A stretch of DNA of 64,000 nt from Umezawaea tangerina (lineage in GTDB: Bacteria; Actinomycetota; Actinomycetes; Mycobacteriales; Pseudonocardiaceae): positions 310,001-374,000 of the forward strand of contig NZ_PVTF01000003.1 in assembly GCF_003002815.1 (NCBI RefSeq), written 5' to 3'. Under the pieces are notes generated by a model, which saw nothing but the letters and a program-made list of their open reading frames with translations, searched no databases and was not told where the DNA came from. Numbering within the stretch: position 1 is the first letter of the stretch; every line of letters begins with the position of its first letter. Both the position numbers and the translations under genes were made by a program. Shown one piece after another: positions 58,748 through 64,000 of the stretch.

Positions 58748-58810
58748 GGCTCCAGTGTGCCTGCCGATATCCGCTGGACCATCGGTGATCCCCCTGATAT
58801 CCGGTTGCGG

Positions 58811-59935
58811 GTGGACATCTTCTGGCACGACGCCTGCCTGGAGCACGACGCGGGCACGGGCCTGTGGGAGCTGCCGGGCGACTGGGACTGGCTCGACGTC
58901 CCCGAGCCGCACCCGGAGGGCGCGGCCAGGCTGCGCACGTTCCGGCACGCCCTGCGGCGCGGACCGGTCGCACCGCACCTGACGTGGCGCACCGGCAGGC
59001 TCGCCACCGACGACGAGCTGGCGCGCGTGCACACCGCCGACTACCTGGCGGCGCTGCGGAAGGCGTGCGAGGGCCCGGACCGGGTCGCGCTGGAGGTCAA
59101 CACGGTCGTCGGCCCCGGCACCTGGGACTCGGTCCTGGCCGCCGCGGGCACCTCGCTGGCCGCCCTGGAGTCCGTCCGCTCCGGCCGCGCGCGGACCGCC
59201 TACGCCCTGGTCCGCCCGCCCGGCCACCACGCCCAGCCCGCGATGGCCGACGGGTACTGCCTGGTCAACAACGCCGCCCTCGTCGCCGAGACGGCCAGGC
59301 GCGAGGGCCTGCGGGTGGCCGTCCTCGACTGGGACGTGCACCACGGCAACGGCACCCAGGAGATCTTCGCCGGCACCCCCGACGTGCTCACGGTCTCGTT
59401 GCACATGCGGCACGGCGCCTGGGGCACCAACCACCCGCAGACCGGCGCCCCCGACGAGCTCGGGGTGGACGGCCGCAACATCAACGTCGAGCTGTCCCTC
59501 GGCGCGGGCGACGAGGCGTACCTGCGCGCCCTGGACGAGATCGCCCTCCCCGCCCTGCGCGAGTTCGCCCCCGACCTCCTGGTGTGCGCGTCCGGCTTCG
59601 ACGGCTCCGCCTTCGACCCCAACGGCAGGCACAACCTGACCGCCGCCGGGTACCGCGCGATCGGACGGCGGGTCGCCGACCTCGGGCTCCCGCTCGTGCT
59701 CACCCAGGAGGGCGGCTACCTCCGCGGCTACGCCGCCCTGTGCCTGCACTCGCTCGTCGAGGGCCTGCTCCGCCTCCCCGACCCGCTCCTGCACGACCCC
59801 CTCGCCTACGTCCCCGACGACTCCCGCCCCACCACCGCTGACCTCGCCGCCGTCCGCGCGGCCCTGGCCCCGCACTGGCACTTCGCCCGCGACACCCCGC
59901 CGCCGGCGGACCTGGCACCGGGGCGGCCGACGTAG
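58811..59935 (+). CDS. histone deacetylase family / acetoin utilisation-type deacetylase
   Basis: A 374-residue zinc-dependent deacetylase of the arginase-deacetylase fold. Motifs: [30 protein letters not shown] (catalytic His pair), [16 protein letters not shown] (zinc Asp/His), [18 protein letters not shown] and [10 protein letters not shown] (catalytic Tyr region). Bacterial members act on acetylpolyamines or acetyl-lysine. The GTG at 58811 follows GATATC, consistent with a leaderless start; an upstream GTG at 58757 would add 18 residues. Confidence 0.92.
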
Positions 59936-60096: not shown

Positions 60097-60200
60097 GCTG
60101 CGACGAACCACCCGCCGCGACGAGCCGAACTCCTGCCGCGACGAGCCGAACCGTTCGCCGCGACGAGACGAACCACCCGCCGCGAGGGACCGACGAGCCG
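60097..60200. repeat. degenerate 21-22-bp tandem repeat
   Basis: Units based on GCCGCGACGAGCCGAAC start at about 60114, 60135, 60157 and 60179, with a partial copy at 60098. They share the CGACGA core with the 16-bp array downstream. Confidence 0.7.
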
Positions 60201-60247
60201 ACGAACGAACGGGGCGAAGCGAGGGACCGGCGAGCCGACGAACGGGC

Positions 60248-60358
60248 GAGCGGGCGAACCGACGAGCGGGCGAACCGACGAGCGGGCGAACCGACGAGCG
60301 GGCGAACCGGCGAGCGGGCGAACCGGCGAACGGGCGAACCGACGAGCGGGCGAACCCC
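60248..60358. repeat. seven-copy 16-bp minisatellite
   Basis: Seven contiguous copies of GAGCGGGCGAACCGAC, with variants ending CCGGC or beginning GAACG, run without spacers. The last copy is truncated by one base. The unit length is not a multiple of three, so it is not a coding repeat. Confidence 0.92.
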
Positions 60359-60367
60359 GGCCCCCGA

Positions 60368-60637
60368 TCAGCGCCCCAGCGCCCCGCGACCCAACCTCAG
60401 CAGGATCATCGCGAGGTCCTTGCCCTCCGGGCCGAGCTCCTTGTAGCGCGCCAGCACGTCGATCTCGCGGTTGTGCACGATCCGCGTGCCGCCGGCGGCC
60501 ATCCGCGCCGCGCCGATGGTCTTGGACACCTCGGCGCGCCGTTTGACGAGGCGCAGCAGTTCCTTGTCCAGGTGGTCGATCTCCTGGCGCAGCGCGTCGA
60601 TGTCCGGAGCGGTGGCGGGGGATTCGGTGGTGCTCAT
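60368..60637 (-). CDS. chorismate mutase (AroQ class)
   Basis: Converts chorismate to prephenate, the branch point to Phe and Tyr. The 89-residue all-helical protein has DIDALRQEIDHLDKELLRLVKRRAEVSKTIGAARM with the active-site Arg and Lys (R of LRQEID, K of VSKTIG) and TRIVHNREIDVLARY. The C-terminus ends RLGRGALGR, the segment that in the mycobacterial MtCM (Rv0948c) couples it to DAHP synthase. The uvrD1/pcrA gene is close by, as in mycobacteria. ATG 60637. A leader peptide and hairpin upstream suggest attenuation by aromatic amino acids. Confidence 0.92.
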   Translation of the reverse strand: MSTTESPATAPDIDALRQEIDHLDKELLRLVKRRAEVSKTIGAARMAAGGTRIVHNREIDVLARYKELGPEGKDLAMILLRLGRGALGR

Positions 60638-60688
60638 GGTGGGGCCTCTCGACTCTCTTCTGCTGAGTCCCGGCCCCGGAAGCGGCGA

Positions 60689-60715
60689 AGCCCCGGGTCC
60701 GAGGACTCCGGGGCT
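60689..60715 (-). terminator. attenuator hairpin upstream of chorismate mutase
   Basis: On the minus strand, AGCCCCGG (60715-60708) pairs with CCGGGGCT (60696-60689), and GTC/GAC extends the stem past a bulged A. It lies between the leader peptide stop (60732) and the chorismate mutase start (60637). Its 5' arm contains CCGGAGTCC (60711-60703), exactly complementary to GGACTCCGG in the leader peptide gene (60757-60749), so an alternative antiterminator can form. No U-run follows. Confidence 0.7.
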
Positions 60716-60731
60716 CTGTGGATGCTGTGCG

Positions 60732-60812
60732 CTAGGCGACCACGGGAGCCGGAGTCCGGTTCCCGTAGAAAAACTCGAAGTGGGTCGAGCGCACGCCGCA
60801 ACTGTGCCACAC
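60732..60812 (-). CDS. candidate aromatic-amino-acid leader peptide
   Basis: A 26-residue open frame starting with GTG at 60812, preceded by GAAGAGGACGGGC (Shine-Dalgarno AGAGGA with good spacing), and ending TAG at 60732. It encodes H-F-E-F-F-Y in consecutive codons (60782-60765), then GNRTPAPVVA. The Phe/Tyr cluster sits about 8 bases before the antiterminator segment, the spacing expected for ribosome-stalling control of the downstream chorismate mutase gene. A second in-frame GTG lies at 60794. This is inference from layout; no homologue was searched. Confidence 0.68.
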   Translation of the reverse strand: MWHSCGVRSTHFEFFYGNRTPAPVVA

Positions 60813-60994
60813 GCCCGTCCTCTTCGGCTACCCGAAGTTCGAGGAGTGGGACGCGCCGTCGTTCCGGCGGCCGACGCGGGCTCCGCACTCCGGTTTGGTC
60901 ACGATCCGTCATCGCAGGCGGCGTGGGTGAAACGACTCTGGCCTGCTCATCGATCTAGTGTGCCAAGGGGTGCGACGACACAGAGGGTGGCGAC

Positions 60995-61501
60995 ATGCGT
61001 GGTTTGACGGTGACCAGGCGCACGGTGTTCGGGATGGCCGTGGTGACGGCCGCGGTGGGGGTGGCGGGCAGTACGGCCGGGATCGCCAACGCGCAGACCG
61101 CGCAGCAGCCCGCTGACCTGCCGGGGGTGGACCTCGATCCCGGCAAGGGCGTCATCAAGGCCAACGACGACTGGTGGTACGTGCACGGCGGCACCTTCGA
61201 GTTCGCGGTGACGCTGGGCGCGCGCACGCAGGGCCGGAAGCGGACGGTGCGGCTGGCCGTGCCGAAGGGCCTGAACATCGTGTCGATCAACGGCGACAAG
61301 TGGAAGGTCGAGAAGGTCGACGACACCGACGTCGAGGCCACCCACCCGGAGCTGGAGAAGCCGGGCCTGAAGCTGCCGAAGCTCGTGATCGCGGCCAAGG
61401 CGAGGAACTTCGGCGCGAGCACGCTGGACGCGTCGGTGCGCGAGCAGGCCGTGAACTACAAGCGCCGGGGCGTCAAGCTGATGGTGGACACGAGCGTCTG
61501 A
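60995..61501 (+). CDS. secreted protein with GKG-ANDDWWYVHGG motif (paralogue 1)
   Basis: A 168-residue exported protein. The N-terminus (VTRRTVFGMAVVTAAVGVAGSTAGIANAQ) is a signal peptide with twin arginines, possibly Tat-dependent, with cleavage near A-N-A-Q. The mature part starts with GKGVIKANDDWWYVHGGTFEFAVT, followed by a beta-rich Lys-containing domain without cysteines. The next gene encodes a paralogue with the same motif. No family was recognised; an Ig-like fold is plausible. ATG 60995. Confidence 0.78.
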   Translation: MRGLTVTRRTVFGMAVVTAAVGVAGSTAGIANAQTAQQPADLPGVDLDPGKGVIKANDDWWYVHGGTFEFAVTLGARTQGRKRTVRLAVPKGLNIVSINGDKWKVEKVDDTDVEATHPELEKPGLKLPKLVIAAKARNFGASTLDASVREQAVNYKRRGVKLMVDTSV

Positions 61502-61596
61502 GATTCCACTCTTCGGTGTACCGGGGTTCACCCGACAGGGGGATGGCCGTCGTGCGATCGTTGGAGATCGACACATCTCGGGCGAAGGTGATTCCC

Positions 61597-62124
61597 ATGC
61601 GGATGAGCAGGGTGGCCGCCGGACTGGTCGGGGTGGGCGCCGTCCTGGCCCTCGCGGTCGGTTCGGCCGCGGTGGCGGTCGGCTCCCAGCCGGCCTCCGA
61701 CACGCCGAGGCCGGCCGCCGCGCCGACCAAGGACGATCCGGGCGCCGTGGAGCTGGAGCACGGCAAGGGCGTCGTCCTCGCGAACGACGACTGGTGGTAC
61801 GTCCACGGAGGGCCGTTCGAGTTCTCCGTGACGGCCACCGCGGCCCGTGACGGGCAGGCGGGACAGGCCGCGCTGTTCGTCTCGTGGCCGTCCGAGTTCT
61901 CCCTCGTGGAGACGGCGGGCGAACGCTGGACCTGCGGTGCCGTCGAGGGCGGAGTGGAGTGCACGAACCCCGCTCCCGCGGTGCCCGGCGAGGCGTGGCC
62001 CGCGTTGACGCTCGCGGTGAGCGGGTCTGGCGCGGTGCAGGACTCGATCGACGTCTACCTGCGCGGCGCGGACGGTTCGGAGGCCCACGCGGGCGCGCCG
62101 ATCGTGTTCGACACGAGCAGCTGA
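61597..62124 (+). CDS. secreted protein with GKG-ANDDWWYVHGG motif (paralogue 2)
   Basis: A 175-residue exported protein with signal sequence MRMSRVAAGLVGVGAVLALAV (cleavage near A-V-G-S), then a Pro-rich spacer and GKGVVLANDDWWYVHGGPFEFSVT. The C-terminal part, with ERWTCGAVEGGVECTNPAPAVPGEAWPALTLAVSG, follows the pattern of cysteine-bridged Ig-like domains on actinobacterial surface proteins. ATG 61597 has GAAGG eight bases upstream. Function unknown. Confidence 0.78.
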   Translation: MRMSRVAAGLVGVGAVLALAVGSAAVAVGSQPASDTPRPAAAPTKDDPGAVELEHGKGVVLANDDWWYVHGGPFEFSVTATAARDGQAGQAALFVSWPSEFSLVETAGERWTCGAVEGGVECTNPAPAVPGEAWPALTLAVSGSGAVQDSIDVYLRGADGSEAHAGAPIVFDTSS

Positions 62125-62196: not shown

Positions 62197-64000
62197 ATGA
62201 GCGCCTTGTTCGACTTGCCCGCGAGTCCCCCGTCCCCTCGGCCGTCCAGGTTGCTCGACGACCTGAACCCCGCCCAGCGGCGGGCGGTGGAGCACGCCGG
62301 GTCACCGCTGCTGGTGGTGGCGGGTGCGGGCTCCGGCAAAACGAGGGTCCTGACCCGCCGCATCGCCTACCTGCTGGCCGAACGCCGGGTCCACCCCGGC
62401 GAGGTCATGGCGATCACCTTCACCAACAAGGCCGCGGCCGAGATGAAGGAGCGCGTCTCCGAGCTCGTCGGCCCGCGCGCCCGGTCGATGTGGGTGTCGA
62501 CGTTCCACTCCATGTGCGTGCGGGTGCTGCGCCGCGAGGCCAAGACGCTCGGCATGTCGTCGAACTTCTCGATCTACGACTCCGACGACTCGCGCAGGCT
62601 GATCACGCTGGTCGCGCGCGACCTCGACCTCGACCCGAAGCGCTACCCGGCGCGGACGCTGTCCATCCACATCTCGAACCTCAAGAACGAGCTGGTGGAC
62701 GCGGAGACCGCGGCGGCGCAGGCGACGAACGACCTGGAACGCCGGGTGGCCGAGGTCTACTCGTCCTACCAGCGCAGGCTCGGCGAGTCGAACTCCATGG
62801 ACTTCGACGACCTGATCATGCGGACCGTCGAGCTGCTGCAGGGCTTCCCGGCCGTGGCCGAGCACTACCGGCGGCGCTTCCGGCACGTGCTGGTCGACGA
62901 GTACCAGGACACGAACCACGCGCAGTACACGCTGGTGCGCGAGTTCGTGGGCACCGGCGCCGACGGCATCCCGCCCGGCGAGCTGTGCGTGGTGGGCGAC
63001 GCCGACCAGTCCATCTACGCGTTCCGCGGCGCGACGATCCGCAACATCGTGGAGTTCGAGCGGGACTACCCGCAGGCCACCACGATCATGCTGGAGCAGA
63101 ACTACCGGTCGACGCAGAACATCCTGAGCGCCGCCAACGCGGTCATCTCGCGCAACCCGGACCGCCGCGAGAAGCGGCTGTGGAGCGACCTCGGCGAGGG
63201 CGAGAAGATCGTCGGATACGTCGCCGACAACGAGCACGACGAGGCCGCGTTCGTCGCGGGCGAGATCGACAAGCTCGTCGACGGCGGTGACGCGACCAAC
63301 GGCGAGATCGCCGTCTTCTACCGCACGAACAACCAGTCGCGCGTGTTCGAGGAGATCTTCATCCGCCTCGGCCTGCCGTACCGGGTCGTCGGCGGTGTCC
63401 GGTTCTACGAGCGCCGCGAGGTGCGCGACGCGCTGGCGTACCTGCGCGCGCTGGCGAACCCGGACGACACGGTGTCCATGCGGCGCATCATGAACGTGCC
63501 CAAGCGGGGCATCGGCGATCGGGCCGAGGTGTGCGTCTCCAACCACGCCGAGAAGTACCGGATGAGCTTCCACGCCGCCCTGCGCGACGCGGTGGCGGGC
63601 AAGGTCGCGTTCCTCAACCCGCGGTCGCAGCGCTCCATCGCCGGGTTCATGGACCTGATGGACGAGCTGGGCAAGCTGGTCGAGCGCGGCGACGACGTGG
63701 CGGACATCCTCGAGGCCGTGCTGGAGAAGACGGCCTACCGGGCCGAGCTGGAGGCCAGCGAGGACCCGCAGGACCACACCCGCGTCGAGAACCTCAACGA
63801 GCTCGTCACGGTCGCCCGCGAGTTCGGCGACCTGACCGCCCTCGCCCCGGTGTCCTCCGACGCGGAGGCCGTCGAGGTCGTCGAGGTGCCCGCCGAGGAC
63901 GAGGGGCTGCCCACCGAGAGCTCGCTGGCCGCGTTCCTGGAGCGCGTCTCGCTCGTCGCGGACGCCGACTCCATCCCGGACGCCGACTCCGACGGCATGG
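62197..64000 (+). CDS. pcrA: UvrD/PcrA-type superfamily 1 DNA helicase (5' part)
   Basis: The first 601 codons of an ATP-dependent 3'-5' helicase; the frame is open to the window end. Motifs: NPAQRRAVEH (Q motif), GAGSGKTRVLTRRI (Walker A), TFTNKAAAEMKERV (Ia), VSTFHSMCVRVLRR, VDEYQDTNHAQY (Walker B), VVGDADQSIYAFRGA (III) and LEQNYRST (IV). An acidic segment of alternating E-V, A and D residues near the window end interrupts the 2B/2A region, as seen in actinobacterial UvrD1/PcrA. It acts in nucleotide excision repair and replication. ATG 62197. Confidence 0.95.
   Translation, partial: MSALFDLPASPPSPRPSRLLDDLNPAQRRAVEHAGSPLLVVAGAGSGKTRVLTRRIAYLLAERRVHPGEVMAITFTNKAAAEMKERVSELVGPRARSMWVSTFHSMCVRVLRREAKTLGMSSNFSIYDSDDSRRLITLVARDLDLDPKRYPARTLSIHISNLKNELVDAETAAAQATNDLERRVAEVYSSYQRRLGESNSMDFDDLIMRTVELLQGFPAVAEHYRRRFRHVLVDEYQDTNHAQYTLVREFVGTGADGIPPGELCVVGDADQSIYAFRGATIRNIVEFERDYPQATTIMLEQNYRSTQNILSAANAVISRNPDRREKRLWSDLGEGEKIVGYVADNEHDEAAFVAGEIDKLVDGGDATNGEIAVFYRTNNQSRVFEEIFIRLGLPYRVVGGVRFYERREVRDALAYLRALANPDDTVSMRRIMNVPKRGIGDRAEVCVSNHAEKYRMSFHAALRDAVAGKVAFLNPRSQRSIAGFMDLMDELGKLVERGDDVADILEAVLEKTAYRAELEASEDPQDHTRVENLNELVTVAREFGDLTALAPVSSDAEAVEVVEVPAEDEGLPTESSLAAFLERVSLVADADSIPDADSDGM

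What the first reader, a model, noticed from the sequence alone, without database searches (positions are those of the whole stretch)
60637..60812. Complete aromatic-amino-acid attenuator ahead of chorismate mutase
On the minus strand a short frame with a good ribosome site encodes H-F-E-F-F-Y in tandem. It is followed by a stem-loop (60715-60689) and then the chorismate mutase start. The leader-gene segment GGACTCCGG (60757-60749) is exactly complementary to CCGGAGTCC in the 5' arm of the stem-loop (60711-60703). This gives mutually exclusive antiterminator and terminator folds placed correctly for stalling at Phe/Tyr codons. Phe/Tyr shortage would thus raise chorismate mutase. The architecture parallels trp/phe attenuators; I know of no description for this gene.
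Basis: partly seen in the sequence, partly recalled or inferred. Interest (0 to 1): 0.78.

Follow-up and report, generated by a model that had tools for sequence, protein, structure and literature searches.

The report
Phe/Tyr attenuator ahead of chorismate mutase
A short Phe/Tyr-rich peptide-coding stretch and a pair of competing RNA hairpins sit in front of a chorismate mutase gene and probably switch it on when phenylalanine or tyrosine runs short; the same device recurs in many related actinobacteria.

Summary
The finding is real, and conservation supports it far better than the single sequence does: the 9-nt complementarity alone occurs in 58 of 3000 shuffles. All 60 primary chorismate mutase (CM) orthologues from 60 sampled family genomes carry an F/Y leader and the matching hairpin. 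Order-wide, 182 of 249 genomes match a model of it; the 40 hits opened all precede CM. A gene-blind pattern search had CM downstream in 77 of 80 listed loci; 3 run off the fetched DNA. Correction: the claimed ribosome site is unsupported; the start is probably GTG 60794-60792, six bases after a conserved -10-like box, so the leader is leaderless. Best explanation: classical ribosome-mediated transcription attenuation by Phe/Tyr-tRNA. No experiment exists, and tree-corrected covariation is not significant. Beyond the finding: related leaders precede DAHP synthase elsewhere; clustered DAHP synthase leaders nearly always include Trp (25 of 26), CM leaders almost never (1 of 47), as if sensor codons match the products of the controlled step. 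Prior art: E. coli pheL-pheA, C. glutamicum aroR-aroF.

The parts
60801..60811 (-). predicted extended -10 box TGTGGCACAGT (consensus TGTGnCAnnnT)
   Evidence: conserved in position 6-7 nt before the leader start in family and order loci; not experimentally mapped
60732..60794 (-). leaderless leader ORF, GTG start at 60794-60792 (predicted +1), MRSTHFEFFYGNRTPAPVVA, stop TAG 60734-60732
   Evidence: related leaders in 60 of 60 primary family orthologues (five of them read by eye)
60765..60782 (-). control codons H F E F F Y (CAC TTC GAG TTT TTC TAC)
   Evidence: sequence; median 4 F/Y codons per leader in 95 loci with an automatically chosen start, 0 in one of them
60741..60767 (-). pause hairpin P1 (segments 1:2), TACGGGAACCGG/ACT/CCGGCTCCCGTG
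   Evidence: 906 of 1034 pair cells form standard pairs in 94 loci; two-sided changes at A5-A21 and A6-A20
60749..60757 (-). segment 2, 5' arm of the antiterminator GGACTCCGG
   Evidence: pairs with 60711-60703; 771 of 846 cells paired over 94 loci
60740..60743 (-). 5' arm GTGG of an inner antiterminator helix
   Evidence: own pairing exceeds 20000 of 20000 permutations in 60 loci, not tree-corrected; 41 of 45 loci concordant for G/A versus C/T
60718..60721 (-). 3' arm CCAC of the inner antiterminator helix
   Evidence: present in the computed antiterminator fold
60703..60711 (-). segment 3, CCGGAGTCC: 3' arm of the antiterminator and 5' arm of the terminator
60688..60716 (-). terminator hairpin (segments 3:4), GAGCCCCGGAGTCCTCGGACCCGGGGCTTC, short U tail
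   Evidence: 875 of 940 cells paired in 94 loci, with A-U to C-G and G-C changes at its base; longer U tracts in other families
60641..60677 (-). second hairpin GGGGCC/GGCCCC plus GACTC/GAGTC next to the CM ribosome site; role uncertain
   Evidence: no consistent sequestration over 58 family loci
60645..60650 (-). ribosome-binding site GAGAGG of chorismate mutase
   Evidence: sequence
60368..60637 (-). monofunctional AroQ-type chorismate mutase, 89 aa, the regulated gene
   Evidence: PF01817 E 2.1e-11; 60 of 60 sampled family genomes have it

Best explanation
A classical ribosome-mediated transcription attenuator. RNA polymerase starts at or next to GTG 60794, and a ribosome loads on the 5' end without a Shine-Dalgarno site (inferred). 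If Phe-tRNA (and perhaps Tyr-tRNA) is scarce, the ribosome stalls on TTC/TTT/TTC/TAC and covers the 5' arm of the pause hairpin. Segment 2 (60757-60749, extended by GTGG 60743-60740) then pairs with segment 3 (60711-60703, plus CCAC 60721-60718), so the terminator cannot form and chorismate mutase is transcribed. If charged tRNA is plentiful, the ribosome runs to TAG 60734 and masks segment 2, the terminator 60716-60688 forms and transcription stops before the gene. Shown: the parts, their conservation, their mutually exclusive complementarity and their location. Inferred: stalling, termination, leaderless initiation and the direction of the response.
For: Conservation: all 60 primary orthologues in 60 sampled family genomes carry leader and hairpin. 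The order-wide model hits 182 of 249 genomes; 40 hits were opened (weakest E 2.7e-6), 39 with CM downstream by the window's CM as query and the last by a Streptomyces-type CM query. A gene-blind pattern gives CM in 77 of 80 listed loci; 3 are cut off. Only one good copy exists in the window's genome (E 1e-21, next 0.56), and the CM paralogue L050 lacks it. Aromatic clusters (4 or more in 7 codons): 47 of 61 family CM upstreams (L050 included) versus 0 of 61 reverse strands and 0-1 of 61 in five shuffles. Antiterminator: 91.1% of cells paired versus 26-69% when slid; permuted partners average 84.4%, 0 of 2000 reach it. RNAalifold chose the antiterminator for the family alignment and P1 plus terminator for the order alignment, i.e. 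both alternatives. Energetics: antiterminator -28.7 kcal/mol before segment 4 exists; terminator fold preferred afterwards. RNA-level constraint: 7 of 60 family leaders change or lose the conserved reading around or after FFYG (L026, L030, L035, L047, L051, L060, L062) while the RNA segments persist (one base shorter in segment 2 of L060 and L062).
Against: No TSS, Term-seq or reporter data. On a CM tree, co-changes in the antiterminator are not significant: independent pairs that differ in the 5' base number 2, 4, 9 and 2 at A12-A15, and the partner goes the same way in 0.5, 0.0, 0.7 and 1.0 of them, mostly not changing at all. In families f2 and f16 only 45 of 63 and 55 of 72 antiterminator cells pair, so the 2:3 fold there may differ. 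The window's own terminator has a short U tail (CTTCG). Before segment 4 exists, the antiterminator is the best fold even with the P1 arm free, so P1 must act kinetically; and the forced antiterminator is 3.1 kcal/mol less stable than the full terminator fold (-32.8 versus -35.9). In C. glutamicum aroR, Tyr availability had no effect although Tyr is in the leader (PMC11802643 passage), so the Tyr part is doubtful.
Confidence: 0.85

Rival explanations
1. Translational attenuation: stalling in the leader frees the ribosome-binding site of CM from a hairpin, with no transcription termination.
For: In the window a second hairpin (60677-60641) encloses the site GAGAGG, and actinobacterial terminators often lack U tails (recalled).
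Against: Over 58 family loci the site is unpaired with mean probability 0.49, varying from 0.03 to 0.96, with no consistent sequestering helix (no shuffled control was run). The conserved 3' hairpin is terminator-like, with longer U tracts in other families, and ends roughly 37-57 nt upstream of the CM start.
Confidence: 0.08
2. The conserved peptide itself (FFYG.RTPAPV) acts, as a nascent-chain arrest peptide or a small protein, rather than charged-tRNA sensing.
For: The downstream peptide FYGxRxPxPV is conserved in most families of the order sample.
Against: 7 of 60 family leaders change or lose that reading (for example FFYGPGLRRP*, FFYGNRTPASRG..., FFYGYWIRCP*) while the hairpin and pairing segments stay; the peptide conservation is explained by the P1 and segment-2 RNA that encodes it.
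Confidence: 0.04
3. A constitutive terminator or a small RNA with a chance leader; no regulation.
For: Terminator hairpins are common, and weak model hits in the class are mostly not this element: of 18 opened hits with E 1.5e-5 to 5.6e-4, 13 have neither CM nor DAHP synthase downstream.
Against: Gene specificity (77 of 80), F/Y codon conservation against reverse-strand and shuffled controls, and conserved start spacing.
Confidence: 0.03

Closest known systems
aroR leader of C. glutamicum aroF (DAHP synthase); Neshat 2014, seen only through passages of PMC11802643 and PMC4046766
   Same: Actinobacterial Phe/Tyr leader peptide (Phe-Tyr-Phe) ahead of an aromatic pathway gene; ribosome stalling raises transcription under Phe limitation
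   Different: Controls DAHP synthase, not chorismate mutase; its sequence was not held here, so homology was not tested
E. coli pheL-pheA attenuator (PMC11802643 passage; details recalled)
   Same: Phe leader, alternative hairpins, product contains a chorismate mutase domain
   Different: Fused CM-prephenate dehydratase in gammaproteobacteria; leader with a ribosome site and without Tyr sensing (recalled); sequences not compared here
trpE/trpS, leuA/leuS, ilvB attenuators of Streptomyces, Corynebacterium and Mycobacterium (PMC1262725 read in part; passages of PMC8079986, and PMC13236596)
   Same: Leader peptide plus hairpins ahead of an amino acid gene; several leaderless leaders in S. lividans
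   Different: Trp, Leu or Ile/Val codons and other genes; neither the part of the 2005 survey that I read nor the S. lividans table seen lists a Phe/Tyr leader
Cys-rich uORFs of mycobacteria (PMC4633059 passages)
   Same: Short uORF upstream of a biosynthetic gene, sensor codons of the end product
   Different: Cysteine; described as translation attenuation in M. smegmatis (PMC13236596 passage)
uORFC-13-1 motif ahead of aroF in Acholeplasma (PMC8632094 passage)
   Same: Candidate Phe uORF with a terminator ahead of DAHP synthase
   Different: Different phylum, with a ribosome site; 24 sequences

Membership tests
ribosome-mediated (leader-peptide) transcription attenuators | short translated leader with codons for the end product of the regulated gene | tested here: met
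   F/Y leader in 60 of 60 primary family orthologues; 47 of 61 upstreams with 4 or more aromatics in 7 codons, 0 of 61 on the reverse strand. Translation itself not tested
ribosome-mediated (leader-peptide) transcription attenuators | terminator hairpin between leader and gene | tested here: met
   hairpin present and conserved; U tail short in the window; termination itself not tested
ribosome-mediated (leader-peptide) transcription attenuators | mutually exclusive antiterminator pairing with the terminator's 5' arm | tested here: met
   771 of 846 cells paired; 0 of 2000 permutations reach it; computed fold
ribosome-mediated (leader-peptide) transcription attenuators | compensatory changes in the antiterminator independent of relatedness | tested here: inconclusive
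   few independent events in which both sides change; no significance
ribosome-mediated (leader-peptide) transcription attenuators | amino-acid-dependent termination in vivo | not testable with these tools
   needs Term-seq or a reporter
C. glutamicum AroR type | Phe-Tyr-Phe leader upstream of the aroF DAHP synthase | tested here: not met
   regulated gene is CM; no PF00793 DAHP synthase was found in the window's genome at E 0.001
any Rfam family | covariance-model match | tested here: not met
   no match in window 60300-61100 at E 5; over 11 related loci one microRNA match far below its gathering score
T-box / riboswitch | known conserved aptamer in the leader | tested here: not met
   no Rfam match

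The most novel reading that the evidence does not exclude
One ancestral aromatic attenuator family, with FYG(Y)R(P) coded in its pause hairpin, runs through the Actinomycetes. It has been passed between chorismate mutase and DAHP synthase, and its sensor codons were rewritten to match the products of the step it controls: Phe/Tyr only ahead of CM; Phe, Tyr and Trp ahead of DAHP synthase. This would be a genetic layer parallel to the known inter-enzyme allostery of the same two enzymes.
Probability: 0.5. Interest if true: 0.7.

Novelty: new member of a known kind. Interest (0 to 1): 0.5.

Why it matters
Chorismate mutase is the branch point between Phe/Tyr and Trp. In M. tuberculosis and C. glutamicum it is known for being switched by complex formation with DAHP synthase (PMC7762937 passages; the word 'transcription' was not found in that main text). 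A conserved Phe/Tyr attenuator would add a transcriptional layer to that control in a large set of bacteria, among them antibiotic producers whose aromatic precursors matter. The codon rule (F/Y for CM, F/Y/W for DAHP synthase) would let one predict, from sequence alone, which end products a given aromatic leader senses. The element could also become a new RNA family: Rfam left the eleven loci tested and the window stretch unannotated.

Tried and rejected
Start at GTG 60812 with a ribosome site: rejected (overlaps the -10 box; CTG in the congener). Ribosome-site sequestration as the main switch: no consistent pattern (no shuffled control). Rfam: nothing. More copies in the own genome: none with E under 0.5. 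Class-wide count with model R2 (185 of 394 at E 0.01): not taken at face value. Of 40 class hits opened, 18 of the first 20 (E 1.2e-14 to 5.5e-6) have CM or DAHP synthase downstream, but only 7 of the second 20 (E 3.5e-9 to 5.6e-4), and 5 of the 18 weaker than 1e-5. Order hits weaker than 2.7e-6 were not opened. Tree-corrected covariation: no significance. Type I DAHP synthase in the own genome: none found. G264, tried as a possible source of an aroF leader, has no type I DAHP synthase, so homology to AroR stayed untested. In one search, 8 of 95 automatically chosen starts were out of frame; for L015, L028, L032, L104 and L115 an in-frame start exists, while L026, L030 and L051 are real changes.

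Rows dropped: L058 from A1 (insertion) and L050 (no element); L004, L011, L012, L018, L033, L098 (terminator anchor shifted), leaving 94 of 100; L098 and L120 from A2, and only 26 of the 60 family loci were put into A2. In one search, ten loci with low P1 scores (indels or other anchors) were kept and pull the P1 percentage down. In one search the inner-helix test used 45 of 60 loci (other arms or ambiguous partners left out). In one search the DAHP synthase set is 50 of the 79 matching genomes (30 best plus 20 that I picked for family spread; one, L341, is truncated; the cluster counted in L340 looks unlike the others and may be chance).

Literature not readable: Neshat 2014 (aroR; not attempted by id, known through other papers), Lopatovskaya 2010 (Mol Biol 44:128, seen only as a reference), and PMC8764745 and PMC10122055 (not held). 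Lopatovskaya 2010 could already contain this prediction.

Full report
WHAT IS THERE. On the minus strand the window shows a -10-like box TGTGGCACAGT (60811-60801). Six bases later is GTG (60794-60792), opening a 20-codon frame MRSTHFEFFYGNRTPAPVVA that ends at TAG 60734-60732. Then come a terminator-like hairpin (60716-60688), a ribosome site GAGAGG and the ATG (60637) of an 89-residue AroQ-type chorismate mutase (PF01817, E 2.1e-11).

IS IT MORE THAN CHANCE. In one sequence the 9-nt complement is weak evidence: 58 of 3000 dinucleotide shuffles have one. Comparison settles it. The CM protein was found in 60 of 60 sampled genomes of the family. All 60 primary orthologues carry the leader and the hairpin; in five (L053, L057, L058, L061, L063, read by eye) FFY is replaced by other F/Y arrangements, and in L030 the frame is lost after one F. 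The CM paralogue L050 has no element. In upstream regions of this family (L050 included), 47 of 61 have a short ORF with at least 4 aromatic residues in 7 codons, against 0 of 61 on the reverse strand and 0-1 of 61 in five shuffles. A model built from 59 of the leaders finds one good copy in the window's genome (E 1e-21; next best 0.56).

LEADERLESS START. Over 179 loci, 148 have [CT]ANNNT followed after 5-8 nt by an in-frame ATG/GTG (gap 6 in 91, gap 7 in 54, gap 5 in 3); the two wrong frames give 10 and 0. Of the 20 misses printed, 14 have the same spacing with AA or GA in the box. With a usual -10 to start distance (recalled) the transcript would begin at the start codon. This is comparative inference, not a mapped start. 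Leaderless leaders are documented for several S. lividans attenuators (PMC8079986 passages).

ALTERNATIVE FOLDS. Three exclusive helices recur. P1 (60767-60741) includes the Tyr codon in its base. The antiterminator joins segment 2 (60757-60749) to segment 3 (60711-60703), with an inner helix GTGG/CCAC (60743-60740 / 60721-60718). The terminator uses segment 3 as its 5' arm. Over 94 of 100 loci from ten families, standard pairs fill 906 of 1034 cells in P1, 771 of 846 in the antiterminator and 875 of 940 in the terminator; sliding the antiterminator partner gives 26-69%, and permuting it among loci averages 84.4% with 0 of 2000 reaching 91.1%. Two-sided changes are seen between families: A13-B15 C-G to G-C in f2, f14 and f15; A15-B13 C-G to G-C in f8; A14-B14 T-A to C-G in f2, f4, f5, f8 and f16. 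The inner helix follows its partner in 41 of 45 family loci (GTGG with CCAC, GTGA with TCAC) and its pairing beats 20000 of 20000 permutations over 60 loci.

AGAINST. Counted on a CM protein tree, no test reaches significance. At A12, A13, A14 and A15 there are 2, 4, 9 and 2 independent pairs of loci that differ in the 5' base; the 3' partner goes the same way in 0.5, 0.0, 0.7 and 1.0 of them and mostly does not change. For the inner helix, 3 supported pairs give 1.8 the same way and 0.0 the other way. f2 and f16 pair less well (45 of 63, 55 of 72).

ENERGETICS IN THE WINDOW. With segment 4 not yet made, the antiterminator is the best fold (-28.7 kcal/mol), whether or not the 5' arm of P1 is masked, so P1 must act by forming first. 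Once the whole terminator is present, with the RNA free from just inside P1, the terminator fold (-35.9) exceeds the forced antiterminator (-32.8), so the antiterminator must win by time. With the RNA free only from 48 nt after the Tyr codon's first base, as with a ribosome at the stop codon, only the terminator remains (-24.2).

RNA OR PEPTIDE. Seven of 60 family leaders change or lose the conserved reading around or after FFYG (L026, L030, L035, L047, L051, L060, L062) yet keep the RNA segments, one base shorter in segment 2 of L060 and L062. The conserved peptide FYGxRTPAPV is therefore best read as the translation of a conserved hairpin.

SPREAD. Order-wide, 182 of 249 genomes match at E 0.01 or better. 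Of 40 hits opened from nine further families (weakest E 2.7e-6), 39 have CM on the same strand by the window's CM as query, and the last (L101) by a Streptomyces-type CM query. A gene-blind pattern search of named genomes listed 80 of at least 119 stretches, mostly Amycolatopsis, Lentzea, Saccharothrix, Pseudonocardia, Prauserella and Actinokineospora, with two Rhodococcus and one Mycobacteroides; 77 of the 80 have CM downstream and the other 3 run off the fetched DNA. In the class, a broader model gives 185 of 394 genomes at E 0.01, but this count includes other terminators: 18 of the first 20 hits opened (E 1.2e-14 to 5.5e-6) and 7 of the second 20 (E 3.5e-9 to 5.6e-4) have a CM or DAHP synthase gene downstream. 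Family f33, which I take for Streptomyces from genome sizes, carries leaders such as MFTQTTFFFTYGNRPAGRHGRAA ahead of CM in 6 of 6 loci opened.

AN UNEXPECTED SECOND TARGET. In f31 (8 of 9 loci opened in both batches) and several other families the model built only from CM leaders lands ahead of a type I-beta DAHP synthase instead (type recalled from its sequence), with leaders such as MQRNFWRFYGYRPTGSVARRALR. Taking DAHP synthase upstreams directly (79 of 197 class genomes match the query; 50 examined), 26 of 50 have the aromatic cluster, 0 of 50 on the reverse strand, and 25 of the 26 include Trp; among the family CM leaders with a cluster 1 of 47 does, and 3 of 99 CM leaders have Trp within the seven codons ending at the Tyr. 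These counts are not corrected for relatedness; the 26 come from ten families, 14 of them from f31 alone, and 24 of the 50 show no cluster at all. The reading is that sensor codons match the products downstream of the controlled step. Two type I DAHP synthase genes in f8 genomes also follow aromatic leaders (GYWRF, AYFWF, read by eye).

HOW IT PROBABLY WORKS. Scarce Phe-tRNA (possibly also Tyr-tRNA) stalls the ribosome over the P1 5' arm, the antiterminator forms and CM is made; plentiful tRNA lets the ribosome reach the stop codon, the terminator forms and transcription ends. In C. glutamicum aroR, Phe limitation but not Tyr availability had an effect (PMC11802643 passage), so I would bet on Phe as the main signal.

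WHAT IS KNOWN. Attenuation as a mechanism is classical; Phe attenuation ahead of pheA (CM-prephenate dehydratase) and Phe/Tyr attenuation of aroF in C. glutamicum are known (passages). In the part of the 2005 survey of actinobacterial attenuators that I read (part 1 of 3), Trp, Cys and Leu elements and ileS T-boxes are reported, with the statement that no conserved structures were seen for other amino acid biosynthesis pathways. S. lividans has eight leaders in the table seen, none for Phe or Tyr. Word look-ups in the main text found no 'chorismate' in PMC13236596, PMC9094748, PMC8632094, PMC2965389, PMC4833913, PMC11109978 and PMC8269248. Searches for chorismate mutase with leader peptide and attenuation terms, uORF/leaderless terms, Term-seq terms (15 of 54 listed), Rv0948c, DAHP synthase leaders, aroF leaders (20 of 236 listed) and attenuation surveys (15 of 137 listed) showed no description of this element in their listings. 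Several relevant papers are not held (Neshat 2014, Lopatovskaya 2010; for two others), so absence from print is not established.

VERDICT. A real, deeply conserved attenuator of a known kind, without an Rfam match, on a gene for which I could find no such description in this phylum, with a testable codon rule as the more interesting part.

Noticed in passing
L263-L269, L275, L280, L281, L283, L292 and 26 of L299-L348: DAHP synthase genes in many actinobacterial families follow short leaders rich in Phe, Tyr and Trp, several with a terminator-like hairpin behind them; a candidate attenuator class for the first step of the pathway.
   Followed up: partly
60226-60356 and 60104-60185: Two tandem repeat arrays (16-bp unit x 8.2; 22-bp unit x 3.8) directly downstream of the chorismate mutase stop codon.
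   Followed up: no
62197-63999 (+): A UvrD/PcrA-like helicase frame near the CM gene (by eye); the neighbourhood resembles mycobacterial CM next to uvrD1 (recalled).
   Followed up: no
58757-59935 (+): Histone-deacetylase-family protein (PF00850, E 1.3e-75) on the other side of the CM gene.
   Followed up: no
60995-61501 (+) and a frame within 61174-62124 (+): Two neighbouring frames share the stretch ANDDWWYVHGG.FEF and look like paralogous secreted proteins; no Pfam match for the first.
   Followed up: no
L030: A two-base difference in the leader removes the FFY reading and the frame then runs to the CM start; an attenuator that may have decayed or switched to translational coupling.
   Followed up: no
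L114, L117, L121: Three leaders of family f8 carry a Trp codon a few codons before FFY ahead of CM, the only exceptions to the F/Y-only rule among the 99 CM leaders tested.
   Followed up: no
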